DNA of 64,000 nucleotides from Alphaproteobacteria bacterium (GTDB lineage Bacteria; Pseudomonadota; Alphaproteobacteria; Micavibrionales; Micavibrionaceae): the NCBI GenBank assembly GCA_028289285.1, contig JANQRF010000002.1, forward strand, positions 620,001-684,000. Reading direction: 5' to 3'. Of the stretch, positions 48,732 to 53,978 are shown piece by piece. The notes below the pieces were generated by a model. It made no database searches and was not told the DNA's origin. It saw only the letters and a program-made list of their open reading frames with translations. The translations under genes were made by a program, and so were the position numbers. Position 1 is the stretch's first letter. Each line of letters starts with the position of its first letter.

Positions 48732-48805
48732 GGCGCGATGGCAGAGTGGCTATGCAGAGGATTGCAAATCCTTGTACGCCGGTTCGATTCCGGCTCGTGC
48801 CTCCA
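48732..48805 (+). tRNA. tRNA-Cys (GCA)
   Basis: A 74-nt cloverleaf. Acceptor arms GGCGCGA and TCGTGCC pair with one G-U; the discriminator is U73, a cysteine tRNA identity base; the anticodon loop is TTGCAAA (GCA); the T arm GCCGG-TTCGATT-CCGGC is perfect. CCA is encoded. Confidence 0.96.
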
Positions 48806-48860
48806 AGCCTTCACGATGTTGACAGCTTTCGAAAGAGAGCATACAAACATCGCACACGTT

Positions 48861-48935
<75 letters not shown>

Positions 48936-48959
48936 TTCTTTTCACAAAAATTTTATACC

Positions 48960-51359
48960 CTACGAAGGTTCCCTTTTGCTGCCCCATATGACGGATGGAT
49001 CAGGTAGCTGTATTCTCTCGTTATCCTCTGCAGGCCTTTGAGGTAATAAATCGGATAGCTCCTCGGGTAAATCTGTACCAGGCCTGGGGAAAGGCGATCC
49101 TTTAGGCCGTGTAACATATGACGTTCTATCAAAATCACGGGGCAGTTGTGGCGGGATAAGGCCGGCGTGAACAGCTATATTTGCGCGTATATCAGGCAAA
49201 AAATTAGGCGCATCTTCTGACATAGAAACTTTTTCAAAAATGTCTTCTTTGCAACATCTCCAGATGTATGAATTTAAGGCGTCCAGATTACCAGGCATAG
49301 GCGTTTCTTTTGTAAATGCATTGGCGGGATCACGCTTGGAATCATTTTTATCTGAATTGCTTTCAGATTCCTCATGCCCGTTCTCAACCCAAAGACAGTC
49401 ACGACCAGATCGCCCCTCCAGTGCATTAAGAATAGTAATCGCACTGTGTTGAGGTTCATAACGTTTACGTCTTGTAAGGCAATGTAGAGCGTAGCTACGC
49501 TCTTCTGATAATAGATCTGCAGGTGATTGCGATTCATTTATTATTTGATCAAGCACACTGGTATGACCTCTACGCCTTGAGAATTCTATATCTTGCATAT
49601 AATGGTTGCATATATCGTCAATTTTTTGCTGATAGCGCAATAACCTGTCCGTTGATATTGCAGCCTCTTTGAATTGTTCCTGAAGGGGAAGGTCAGAATT
49701 CGGATCGCCAAAAAAAGTAACGGATCGCCTGAATAGTTCCCCCGTGCGCTCTACCAAATTATCTTCTGCAATGCTTGCCAGTGCCGTAGCTTGATCGGGT
49801 TGGGAATTATCTGCAATCTGCTTTAATGTTGGGAAATGCCCTGTTCCATCCGGCAAAATACCCGTCAGCGTTCCATGCGCAAGGCTGGCAACCTGAAGAA
49901 AAGCCAACTGCGCATTATCACCCCTGCCATACAGAGCCAAAATATCGAGCAGGCCCTTATCAACCATTTGCTCCGGATCAACGCCATCAAAATTCCCCAA
50001 CTGATCCGCAAGACGCAAATGATCGCTGGAATAGTCATCCCTCAAATCGCCGGGTGATATTAACGGACCGCATTCCTCTGCATAACGCGCAGATTCTAAT
50101 TCCTGCGCAACTTTAACGCTTGGCGTTAAAAACGCGTCACAAAATTCATAAAGCTGTAAAACATCATCCAGGATCAAGGTGTTCCTTAAAACCACATGAC
50201 CTTCATCGTTAATGACTGTATAGCGATAGCTTTCAGCAACATCCGAAGCTTTCTTTATGTCACCTACAAGTTTTTGCGGGATATCCTCAGGAAAATCGCC
50301 GGACAACAAACATTCATATATTATATGGCCACTAATTTTAGAACTTTCATCGAAGACCTCCCCTGTATCCTCATCACGTACATAGAAAAAATCCCAAAAC
50401 TCATCGACAATCTCAGGATTATCCATCTTCCAGAAGCCTAAAAAATTTCTCCAGTAATCTTTGTAGTCGCTTTCATCAATTGCCCCAGGCCTTTTGTAAA
50501 CATTGTCAGGTTTTTTATAACGAGATGTCGGCGGTCGAAATGTAATCTCACCTTCTTCAGCCAGACGATGAACCGCATGCTCAACATATCTTTGTAATTC
50601 TCGCGGATTAACACCTTGTTTGGGCTTAAAATGTATAGAAAATGACGTGACTTCAGCAATCGTGTCACCGTATATATCATAATGAAAATCACGCTCTATA
50701 TCTGCATATGGCTCGATAGCAACCAGCCGCGCAGGCATGACGCTGATATCGTCACATAAATTCTTGTTTTCAGGTTTGTTGGCTTTGCGTTCCCTGTAAA
50801 CAAGCGAGCGTTTGTCATCCCAACTTAAAATATCATTCCCCACAACAGAAGCCAGCTCAGCAAAATCCTGTTTACTTCCCCAAATATTCAACATCATCAA
50901 TGCAACAAAACGCGGGTCTTCTTTCTCTAACAAATCGGTAAATGTGTTTGGGTCAGGCTGGTTATTAACCTGCCATTCCGATAAAGGGGGAAGGTTGTAA
51001 TATAGTCTTGAATGTTGCCAGCCCCAAACAGCATCAAAAATACGATAAAGAACAATGGCGCGAGCATTTTCTGGCTCTTTGGACAATTCAGTGACAGATT
51101 CTTTGATCGCTGACTTTAGCTTATCCAGAAGTTCCGGGTCCGGCTTATGCACGGAATCATAAATACTTTTATCCCCGAATTTGAGACTTAGCTCTAATAG
51201 AACAGGATCCGGGTTTTTGATTCCATGTTTTGCCTTCAATGCGCTTATTACATCAGCGCGCAACTGGGGGTCATTTGCAGCAAAAAGCTCTTCATAAAGC
51301 TTTTCGCCATCTTTTTCTTCAGAGTCATTGTCCATTATGGAGTCTCTAACAATCGTCAT
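48960..51359 (-). CDS. Large hypothetical protein, 799 aa
   Basis: A 799-residue protein that nearly fills the 2.5-kb segment between the tRNA-Asn end and its repeat. It is hydrophilic and acidic, apparently mostly helical, with no signal peptide, no membrane helix, no Walker motif and no nuclease motif that I can recognise. Segments such as YWRNFLGFWKMDNPEIVDEF (about 300-320) are aromatic-rich; the C-terminal 150 residues are low in order and rich in Pro, Ser and Asp. ATG 51359 is used; a second Met eight codons in is possible. Codon use is more AT-rich than the neighbouring housekeeping genes. Function unknown. Confidence 0.7.
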   Translation of the reverse strand: MTIVRDSIMDNDSEEKDGEKLYEELFAANDPQLRADVISALKAKHGIKNPDPVLLELSLKFGDKSIYDSVHKPDPELLDKLKSAIKESVTELSKEPENARAIVLYRIFDAVWGWQHSRLYYNLPPLSEWQVNNQPDPNTFTDLLEKEDPRFVALMMLNIWGSKQDFAELASVVGNDILSWDDKRSLVYRERKANKPENKNLCDDISVMPARLVAIEPYADIERDFHYDIYGDTIAEVTSFSIHFKPKQGVNPRELQRYVEHAVHRLAEEGEITFRPPTSRYKKPDNVYKRPGAIDESDYKDYWRNFLGFWKMDNPEIVDEFWDFFYVRDEDTGEVFDESSKISGHIIYECLLSGDFPEDIPQKLVGDIKKASDVAESYRYTVINDEGHVVLRNTLILDDVLQLYEFCDAFLTPSVKVAQELESARYAEECGPLISPGDLRDDYSSDHLRLADQLGNFDGVDPEQMVDKGLLDILALYGRGDNAQLAFLQVASLAHGTLTGILPDGTGHFPTLKQIADNSQPDQATALASIAEDNLVERTGELFRRSVTFFGDPNSDLPLQEQFKEAAISTDRLLRYQQKIDDICNHYMQDIEFSRRRGHTSVLDQIINESQSPADLLSEERSYALHCLTRRKRYEPQHSAITILNALEGRSGRDCLWVENGHEESESNSDKNDSKRDPANAFTKETPMPGNLDALNSYIWRCCKEDIFEKVSMSEDAPNFLPDIRANIAVHAGLIPPQLPRDFDRTSYVTRPKGSPFPRPGTDLPEELSDLLPQRPAEDNERIQLPDPSVIWGSKREPS

Positions 51360-51426
51360 AAAATCTTATTGAGTTATGACTTTTGCATAATTTTCCATAT
51401 GTTTGCAACGCAAAAACACTAGAGGT

Positions 51427-51439
51427 GGGGAGCCATTTC
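51427..51439 (+). repeat. Distal attachment-site copy (partial tRNA-Asn 3' end)
   Basis: Second copy of GGGGAGCCATTTC, without the rest of the tRNA. It lies 67 bp upstream of the start of the 799-residue gene and marks the far boundary of the segment. Confidence 0.65.
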
Positions 51440-51544: not shown

Positions 51545-52090
51545 TTATTGATTAGCCGGCTGCGGCTGTCCTGCTGCTGGTTCTATTGTCGGCTGCTCAC
51601 CCGATATAAGGGTAGCAACTTTCTCTTTATCAAGGTGTGGGTAGTGCATGCCCATAATGAATTCGATTTTTTTCTGAAAGGCTTTCAGAGTTAAACTATA
51701 ACCTTGCTCTTTTGAGCGTTGTGATGGATATGATCGCCCAAATTCCTCTGAGTGTGTCTTTGTTATACGCGTTATTGTGTAAGGACCAAATTCTATGTCC
51801 TTATTAAGGCTACCAAAACGCTCTTTACTGCCATTACAACTAATCAAATATTCATGAGAGCCAACAGCCAAAATAATATGAGGGTAACGATCGGTAGGAA
51901 TAATATGAATATCTATGTCAGCTCTAAAAGCATTCCCTAATCTGGCAACAAAATCTCTAACCGGTTGAAGCTGCCCTTCAATGCGAGCTCTTCTTTTATT
52001 TTGTTCATCTTGCGCAGCTCTATGCTGCTCAGAAAGTTGTAACCCCATGCCTGCAAGAGCACTAGGCCTCTCGGTTGAAACTGTGCGCAT
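51545..52090 (-). CDS. Hypothetical protein, 181 aa
   Basis: A 181-residue soluble protein. The N-terminal third is a charged helix (LSEQHRAAQDEQNKRRARIEG), the middle is beta-rich (IDIHIIPTDRYPHIILAVGS), and the C-terminus is rich in Gln, Pro and Ala, probably disordered. No family, signal peptide or catalytic motif recognised. It lies just outside the tRNA-Asn segment. The DNA is AT-rich, like other accessory genes here. Confidence 0.6.
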   Translation of the reverse strand: MRTVSTERPSALAGMGLQLSEQHRAAQDEQNKRRARIEGQLQPVRDFVARLGNAFRADIDIHIIPTDRYPHIILAVGSHEYLISCNGSKERFGSLNKDIEFGPYTITRITKTHSEEFGRSYPSQRSKEQGYSLTLKAFQKKIEFIMGMHYPHLDKEKVATLISGEQPTIEPAAGQPQPANQ

Positions 52091-52170: not shown

Positions 52171-53217
52171 TCAGAGAATAACCTCTTCCCACAAATTTGT
52201 TTGATAGGCTGGATCAAGCGCTTGACGCTGGCTATGTGTTTTTGCCGCTTGCGAATAGCGAGTATAAGCATCCTGATCTGACCAAAGTAACCGCACTTGT
52301 TTTGCCCAGTCTGAAACGGGCGCATCGATTGGTAAGGTAATGCCCCCTGCCCCCACGGACTCAGGCAGGCCGCCTTGCGTGCTGGCAATCACGGGGATGG
52401 CATTTATCTGCGCTTCAGCAACAACGCGCCCGAACGCTTCCTGCCACCGGCTTGGGACGAGCAAAATTTTGGTTTGCGCATAGATTTTACAAACATCCTT
52501 TTGCACCGGAACAAATTTGATATTGGGCCTGTCTTTTAAGGCCACATTGAAATCACGCTTTTCCTGTGCACTCATCGGCCAGCCGCCTGCAAAAAGAAAC
52601 GGAATATCCGGACATTTCCCGGCAACAGACAAAGCAATATCCAGTCCTTTTACAGCGTGCGGATTAATAAAGGTCACATAAGACGGTTTGACGTCTGTTT
52701 GATAAAGTTCCGGTTCAATAATTGGGTGAATGACCGATGCGTCTATTCCAAAGGCCTTTTCGTAGGCTTGTGCTGTGAACTGTGAATTCGCAACAAATCT
52801 TGTTTCTTTGTGAAGCTCTTTAAAATCACCACCAAGTTCTTCCATCTCCGCATCCTGGAGCATCATAATCATTGGAATATTTTCCGCCTGCACGGCAAGC
52901 CCCATCCGCACAGGCTGGCGTGCAAGTATAATGGCGAGACTAGGCTGAAAATCCTCTTTTACCTCTTTCACATGCGCCCAGGGAGTCCAGCTCCGGTAGA
53001 TCGGATACCCAAAATCATGATCCAGGCTAAAAGAAGACCGGGTGAGTTTTCGCCGCATCCTGTATTTCAAACCCGCAAATGATTGCCCCATATGGCATAG
53101 CAAAGCCGGTTCGTGGCCGCGCTCTTGCAGGCGTTTCATCAACGCGTGGGCGGAGCGCTGCGCGCCGCCAATCATATCAGGCAAAAACGGATGCGCGGTA
53201 ACAAACAGAATTTTCAT
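52171..53217 (-). CDS. Glycosyltransferase family 4 protein
   Basis: A 348-residue GT-B fold glycosyltransferase. The N-terminal domain begins MKILFVTAHPFLPDMIGGAQ with the glycine loop, and the nucleotide-sugar domain has the E-x7-E motif in SRWQEAFGRVVAEAQ followed by IPVIASTQGGLPE. It likely adds a sugar in surface polysaccharide or lipid synthesis; acceptor and donor are unknown. It stands alone, divergent from the AlaX gene, with no other polysaccharide genes nearby. Confidence 0.88.
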   Translation of the reverse strand: MKILFVTAHPFLPDMIGGAQRSAHALMKRLQERGHEPALLCHMGQSFAGLKYRMRRKLTRSSFSLDHDFGYPIYRSWTPWAHVKEVKEDFQPSLAIILARQPVRMGLAVQAENIPMIMMLQDAEMEELGGDFKELHKETRFVANSQFTAQAYEKAFGIDASVIHPIIEPELYQTDVKPSYVTFINPHAVKGLDIALSVAGKCPDIPFLFAGGWPMSAQEKRDFNVALKDRPNIKFVPVQKDVCKIYAQTKILLVPSRWQEAFGRVVAEAQINAIPVIASTQGGLPESVGAGGITLPIDAPVSDWAKQVRLLWSDQDAYTRYSQAAKTHSQRQALDPAYQTNLWEEVIL

Positions 53218-53255
53218 TGGTTTTTTATGGCCGTTTTTTCTATAAAGAGAGCATC

Positions 53256-53978
53256 ATGCCCGAAAAACTGTTTTACGACCATCCTTACGATCAAAGCTTT
53301 TCTGCAAAAGTCATCGCAGCTGATGAAAACGGCATTCGCCTGGACCGGACTCTTTTTTATGCCACCTCCGGCGGGCAGCCCGGCGATACAGGTACTCTTA
53401 AGGTAGCCAATGAAAATTTCAAGGTTGTTACCACACGCAAAGGGGACGGCCCGGACGATATCCTTCATGTTTTAGAAGACGGCGCCCCCCTGCCCGCTAT
53501 TGGCGCCGAAGTTTCCGGCGAGATAAATTGGGAGACCCGCCATAAATATATGCGCATGCACACATCCATGCATCTTATGTGCAGCCTAATTGAAGGCTAT
53601 GCGACCGGCGGGCAGATTGGTGCAGAAAAAAGCCGTGTGGATTTTGATGTCCCTGCCGGCACCTATGATAAAGAGACCCTGACCGAACAGATTAATGAAC
53701 TGATCAAAGCCGATTACCCTGTCATTTCAGGCTGGATCAGCGAAGAAGAGCTGGAAGCAAACCCGCAACTAATCCGCACCATGTCCGTTAAACCCCCTTC
53801 CGGCGCAGGAAAAGTCCGGACGATCCGAATCGGCACCGAAGAAAAACGTATTGATTACCAGCCCTGCGGTGGAACGCATGTAAAATCAACCGGTGAAATC
53901 GGCCCGATCCGCATTTCAAAGATCGAAAATAAAGGTAAACAAAACAGGCGTTTTCATATTGTTTTTGATTCTGTCTAA
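53256..53978 (+). CDS. Alanyl-tRNA editing protein (AlaX)
   Basis: A 240-residue free-standing editing domain that hydrolyses Ser- or Gly-tRNA-Ala. The zinc ligands are in HTSMHLM (HxxxH) and PCGGTHV (CxxxH), and ATSGGQPGDTG is the conserved N-terminal barrel part. Length fits the medium AlaX group. ATG 53256 was chosen over an upstream in-frame start that overlaps the glycosyltransferase start. Confidence 0.92.
   Translation: MPEKLFYDHPYDQSFSAKVIAADENGIRLDRTLFYATSGGQPGDTGTLKVANENFKVVTTRKGDGPDDILHVLEDGAPLPAIGAEVSGEINWETRHKYMRMHTSMHLMCSLIEGYATGGQIGAEKSRVDFDVPAGTYDKETLTEQINELIKADYPVISGWISEEELEANPQLIRTMSVKPPSGAGKVRTIRIGTEEKRIDYQPCGGTHVKSTGEIGPIRISKIENKGKQNRRFHIVFDSV

What the first reader, a model, noticed from the sequence alone, without database searches (positions are those of the whole stretch)
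48927..51439. A 2.5-kb segment bounded by a tRNA-Asn end and its 13-bp copy, carrying one unknown 799-residue gene and no integrase
GGGGAGCCATTTC, nine bases of which are the tRNA-Asn acceptor end with CCA, recurs in direct orientation exactly 2,500 bp downstream. Such copies are the known mark of site-specific integration at tRNA genes. The single gene inside has no family I can name and is AT-rich. A one-gene unit without its own recombinase could be a satellite mobilised in trans, a cargo (for example defence) unit, or the remains of a larger island.
Basis: partly seen in the sequence, partly recalled or inferred. Interest (0 to 1): 0.72.

Follow-up and report, generated by a model that had tools for sequence, protein, structure and literature searches.

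The report
One-gene insert at tRNA-Asn hotspot
In a relative of the predatory bacterium Micavibrio, a 2.5-kb stretch carrying one gene of unknown function appears to have been inserted at the end of a tRNA gene that mobile elements, some carrying anti-phage defences, use repeatedly across this bacterial order.

Summary
GGGGAGCCATTTC lies at 48926-48938 and 51427-51439 (offset 2,501), with no other copy in the 2.08-Mb genome. The segment holds one long gene (799 codons, minus strand) and no recombinase. The genome belongs to the order of uncultured Micavibrio.

The insertion reading is supported. Across the order, the tRNA-Asn 3' flank is hypervariable. Several recombinase families use it, and two of the elements there carry defence genes (Gabija; type IIG restriction-modification). 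Copies of the tRNA 3' end of at least 12 bp lie downstream on the same strand in 6 of 54 loci, and on the opposite strand in none.

The gene is sporadic: 4 of 142 genomes in the order. A 63%-identical copy in another family sits in the same orientation beside tRNA-Asn, while a same-family copy is only 26% identical. This points to horizontal exchange.

Most likely it is an integrase-less remnant or minimal passenger of an island that entered through a short acceptor-end att core. What the protein does is unknown: no family matched, and both structure predictions failed. A same-genus empty site could not be tested, because that assembly breaks there.

The parts
48732..48805 (+). tRNA-Cys; a frequent upstream neighbour of tRNA-Asn in the order
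48860..48934 (+). tRNA-Asn(GTT), the presumed integration target (attB)
48926..48938 (+). left copy of the 13-bp repeat GGGGAGCCATTTC (presumed attL core)
48960..51359 (-). 799-codon ORF of unknown family, pI 4.7, no predicted membrane segment; likely start at codon 9 (about 51335); converges on the tRNA-Asn 3' end
51427..51439 (+). right copy of the 13-bp repeat (presumed attR core)
51545..52090 (-). 181-codon orphan ORF just outside the right repeat; no relative in the 34 other order genomes searched; GC 42%
53217..53978 (+). AlaX-like gene (named from sequence motifs by eye, no family search run); its relative follows tRNA-Asn at once in G125, a near-empty site

Best explanation
The 2.5-kb segment 48939-51426 is accessory DNA inserted at the 3' end of tRNA-Asn by site-specific recombination through a short core (GGGGAGCCATTTC) at the acceptor end. 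Such short cores at this position are left by the large-serine-recombinase elements and by the G101-type tyrosine-integrase element found at the same tRNA in relatives. Elements that recombine in the anticodon loop leave 45-48 bp copies instead. The recombination leaves the tRNA intact and a copy of its end at the far side. The recombinase is now absent, so the segment is most likely the remnant of a larger island, or a one-gene passenger that needs an integrase supplied in trans. Shown: repeat, its rarity, the hotspot, the sporadic distribution, the gene-tree conflict. Inferred: the integration event, which recombinase did it, loss versus trans supply. What the cargo does is not known; anti-phage defence is a guess from its location.
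For: Repeat unique in the genome and beyond the null. Same-strand copies of the tRNA-Asn 3' end of at least 12 bp in 6 of 54 loci, 0 of 54 on the opposite strand. Recombinases at this tRNA: serine recombinase in G032, G088, G012 (split) and C-terminal remnants in G084 and G051; P4-type tyrosine integrases in G020, G127, G056 and, in part, G025; an integrase in G100; an integrase, relaxase and Gabija genes in G101 with a 16-bp repeat ending GGGGAGCCATT. The G012 repeat has the same GGGGAGCCATT core. tRNA 3'-half copies starting in the anticodon loop in G100 and G028. 40 of 54 first downstream genes have no relative among the downstream genes of the other loci. The gene is in 4 of 142 order genomes, and in a sample of 385 class genomes only in this one. 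63% identical copy in G128 (another family), same orientation, beside tRNA-Asn. Same-family G019 only 26%. Median reciprocal-best identity of 27 protein pairs G000-G128 is 42%. G125 has tRNA-Asn followed at once by the AlaX-like gene.
Against: G128, with the gene in the same place, shows no tRNA-end copy of 10 bp or more on its other side. The same-genus genome G001 breaks at the tRNA pair, so a clean empty site is not shown. 13 bp is short; two of 80 control stretches reached 12. Between the right repeat and the AlaX-like gene lie two more genes, so the repeat may bound only part of what was inserted. 63% lies within the range of conserved proteins between the two genomes, so it does not prove transfer by itself.
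Confidence: 0.72

Rival explanations
1. An old resident gene beside tRNA-Asn, inherited vertically and lost in most lineages; the 13-bp repeat is chance.
For: G128 in another family has the gene in the same place and orientation without a repeat. ValRS is 63-64% identical between this genome and two other f7 genomes, so 63% is possible by descent for a strongly conserved protein.
Against: 138 of 142 genomes lack it. Same-family G019 has only a 26% relative. Median reciprocal-best identity with G128 is 42%. The repeat is unique and the site is a demonstrated hotspot.
Confidence: 0.17
2. A compact non-autonomous element (satellite or passenger) that still moves, using an integrase supplied in trans by another element that recognises the tRNA-Asn end. 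This is one branch of the best explanation, scored here on its own.
For: Single gene between intact short repeats; several integrase families in the order use this tRNA.
Against: Of the PF00589 matches in this genome, the two examined closely lie beside tRNA-Glu and tRNA-Met, not tRNA-Asn. No relative of the G032 serine recombinase or the G101 integrase was found in the roughly 40% of the own genome searched. No second copy of the gene in this genome.
Confidence: 0.15
3. The gene arrived by homologous recombination between conserved flanks (the tRNA pair and its neighbours), not by an integrase.
For: Same position and orientation in two families without a repeat in G128.
Against: Flanking genes are far diverged between these families (the PCMT-type protein is 30-35% identical in f7 genomes), which makes such exchange unlikely; the 13-bp repeat stays unexplained.
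Confidence: 0.08

Closest known systems
Integrative mobilizable element with Gabija at the same tRNA-Asn in G101 (L139)
   Same: Same tRNA, same acceptor-end core GGGGAGCCATT, direct repeats
   Different: About 10 kb with tyrosine integrase, relaxase and gajA/gajB; the window segment has none of these
Large-serine-recombinase elements at tRNA-Asn in G032, G088, G012
   Same: Same tRNA; short core at the acceptor end (11-12 bp) where the far end could be found; cargo includes type IIG restriction-modification in G012
   Different: They carry, or carried, the recombinase; none carries the 799-aa gene
Genomic islands of Micavibrio aeruginosavorus ARL-13
   Same: Same kind of bacterium; 4 of 9 islands are flanked by a tRNA gene (PMC3189940)
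   Different: 11.4-27.4 kb, seven of nine with a lambda-type integrase
Defence-island hotspots at tRNA genes in E. coli
   Same: tRNA loci as sites for exchangeable islands with diverse cargo (PMC10121019)
   Different: There the islands of unclear mobilisation typically keep an integrase or recombinase; here none is present and the cargo is of unknown function

Membership tests
tRNA-site-specific genomic island | Direct repeat of the tRNA 3' end at the far boundary | tested here: met
   13 bp, unique in the genome, beyond the null of 80 stretches
tRNA-site-specific genomic island | Integrase or recombinase gene inside | tested here: not met
   Only the 799-codon ORF is of any length; no recombinase family matched
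tRNA-site-specific genomic island | Sporadic presence among relatives | tested here: met
   4 of 142 order genomes
tRNA-site-specific genomic island | Empty site in a close relative | tested here: inconclusive
   G001 contigs break at the tRNA pair; the more distant G125 has tRNA-Asn followed at once by the AlaX-like gene
tRNA-site-specific genomic island | Excised circular form | not testable with these tools
   no reads available
Phage satellite (P4 / PICI type) | Integrase, replication and packaging-interference genes | tested here: not met
   single gene; best PHROG match E 0.37, chance level
Known anti-phage defence system | Match to a described defence protein | tested here: not met
   no PADLOC match at E <= 1
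Known anti-phage defence system | Protects cells against phage | not testable with these tools
   needs an assay

The most novel reading that the evidence does not exclude
The 799-aa family is itself tied to the tRNA-Asn locus: three of its four known members lie within about 3 kb of tRNA-Asn and no recombinase was found beside them. It could be a new defence protein carried at this hotspot or, less likely, a new kind of protein that brings its own gene to this site.
Probability: 0.12. Interest if true: 0.75.

Novelty: new member of a known kind. Interest (0 to 1): 0.42.

Why it matters
It adds an order-wide integration hotspot at tRNA-Asn in little-studied, Micavibrio-related bacteria, with several unrelated recombinase families using the same site and defence systems among the cargo. 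The 799-aa protein is an uncharacterised, lineage-restricted family and a candidate for a defence or predation assay, because of where it sits.

Tried and rejected
Structure: AlphaFold2 on the full protein (mean pLDDT 36) and on residues 376-600 (33.5) failed, so no fold search was run. Pfam, NCBIfam, PADLOC and PHROGs gave nothing usable; a profile against PDB sequences gave only E 0.58 or worse. Phage and plasmid records and IMG/VR gave no relative. Rejected: anticodon-loop integration as in G100 and G028, because those leave 45-48 bp copies. Looked for and not found: a tRNA-Cys repeat around the G019 copy (none of 9 bp or more). The counts of tRNA-Arg downstream (19 of 54) and tRNA-Cys upstream (15 of 54) are limited by how much flank was fetched.

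Full report
Observation. tRNA-Asn(GTT) lies at 48860-48934 on the plus strand, behind tRNA-Cys at 48732-48805. GGGGAGCCATTTC occurs at 48926-48938 and at 51427-51439, an offset of 2,501, and nowhere else in the 2.08-Mb genome. I asked for the longest exact match that spans the last base of the tRNA. The 16 kb downstream gives 13 on the same strand and 8 on the opposite strand. Eighty 16-kb stretches of the same genome give 7 to 12. The repeat is therefore unlikely to be chance, but at about the 1% level rather than beyond doubt. Between the copies lies one long ORF, 48960-51359 on the minus strand, 799 codons. Its nearest relative begins at the codon that aligns with codon 9, so the true start may be there.

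Host. A 10.1-kb contig that carries the nearest relative is recorded as uncultured Micavibrio. It is genome G128, in another family of the same order as the window. M. aeruginosavorus is reported to have nine genomic islands, four of them flanked by a tRNA gene (PMC3189940).

The gene. No Pfam, NCBIfam or PADLOC family matched, and PHROGs gave only chance-level hits. No relative was found in phage or plasmid records or in IMG/VR contigs; the IMG/VR scans used short peptide patterns and could miss distant relatives. With a profile of three members, 4 of 142 genomes of the order match: this one, G128, G019 and G049. Of 385 genomes drawn from the class, only this one matches. The protein is acidic (pI 4.7), about 91 kDa, and its most hydrophobic 19-residue stretch is too weak for a membrane helix. 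AlphaFold2 failed on the whole protein and on its conserved middle, so no fold comparison was possible.

Where relatives of the gene lie. In G128 the 63%-identical copy (L071:6815-9235) ends 11 bp from the 3' end of tRNA-Asn and converges on it, as in the window. In G019, of the window's own family, a 26%-identical copy lies between tRNA-Cys and tRNA-Asn. In G049, of G128's genus, a partial relative lies elsewhere, with no tRNA in 18 kb. So three of four members lie close to tRNA-Asn. That the window protein is far closer to one from another family than to one from its own family suggests horizontal transfer. Between 464 kb of this genome and about 253 kb of G128, the 27 reciprocal best pairs have a median identity of 42%; this protein (61% in that comparison) ranks eighth. 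ValRS is 63-64% identical between this genome and two other genomes of G128's family. Transfer is likely, not proved. G128 has no copy of the tRNA end of 10 bp or more on the far side of the gene.

The site across the order. I read 53 tRNA-Asn loci of relatives, mostly with about 10 kb or more downstream. Counting the window, 40 of 54 first downstream genes have no relative among the downstream genes of any other locus. Same-strand copies of the tRNA 3' end that span its last base reach 12 bp or more in 6 of 54 loci (37, 31, 16, 15, 13 and 12 bp) and in none on the opposite strand. Recombinase genes lie at this tRNA in many relatives. A large serine recombinase is whole in G032 and G088 and split in G012, and only its last 40-48 residues remain in G084 and G051. 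P4-type tyrosine integrases lie in G020 and G127, and by similarity in G056 and, in part, G025. Another tyrosine integrase follows tRNA-Asn in G100, whose contig C80 also holds two 3' halves of tRNA-Asn that start in the anticodon loop. In G101 a 10-kb element holds an integrase, a relaxase and Gabija genes (GajA E 4e-276, GajB E 2e-238) and ends in a 16-bp copy, TTCCTGGGGAGCCATT. The G012 element holds a type IIG restriction-modification gene. G017 has a 2.95-kb stretch in which no recombinase was recognised, closed by an 11-bp copy whose flank resembles the G012 element's end.

Empty site. The same-genus genome G001 breaks just before the tRNA pair, and no tRNA-Asn was found in it, so the best test was not possible. 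In G125, of the same family, the first gene after tRNA-Asn, 11 bp away, is a relative (56% identical) of the AlaX-like gene at 53217-53978 in the window. Everything between tRNA-Asn and that gene in the window (the segment, a 181-codon orphan and a glycosyltransferase-like gene) may thus have come in by one or more events. The names AlaX-like and glycosyltransferase-like come from reading the sequences, not from a family search.

Mechanism. The short repeat at the acceptor end fits the large-serine-recombinase elements and the G101-type element, and not the anticodon-loop integrases, which leave 45-48 bp. The segment has no recombinase. Of the PF00589 matches in this genome, the two examined closely lie beside tRNA-Glu and tRNA-Met. 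No relative of the G032 serine recombinase or of the G101 integrase was found in the roughly 40% of the own genome searched for them. Hence remnant or passenger, with loss more likely because partly eroded elements are seen at this site in G084, G051, G012 and G017. What the protein does is not known. Defence is suggested only by the company this site keeps in two relatives. A role in predation or another function is also open.

Verdict. A real, probably inserted, one-gene accessory segment at a well-used tRNA-Asn hotspot: a new member of a known kind with an uncharacterised protein.

Noticed in passing
L048:11725-11790, L111 and L145 just downstream of tRNA-Asn, L053:11960-12090: Partial tRNA-Asn copies that start at the T-loop (GGTTCGAATCC) and run through CCA into the trailer; they lie roughly 55-115 bp after tRNA-Asn in L048, L111 and L145, and about 8.8 kb downstream in L053.
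   Followed up: partly
L139:1023-11074: A 10-kb element at tRNA-Asn with tyrosine integrase, relaxase and Gabija gajA/gajB, bounded by a 16-bp repeat.
   Followed up: yes
L102:6061-7569, L115:10571-12079, L053, L121, L118: A large serine recombinase family whose gene ends at the tRNA-Asn 3' end, in whole, split and nearly erased states.
   Followed up: partly
L071:5211-6359: A 382-residue protein beside the G128 copy with a motif (PIHDGFLVE) that recalls family A DNA polymerases; no Pfam match; resemblance by eye only.
   Followed up: no
window:54403-55011: A 202-codon ORF with a below-threshold KAP P-loop NTPase match (E 0.0064).
   Followed up: no
window:51477-51511: Inverted repeat (13-nt arms) between the right 13-bp copy and the 181-codon ORF.
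   Followed up: no
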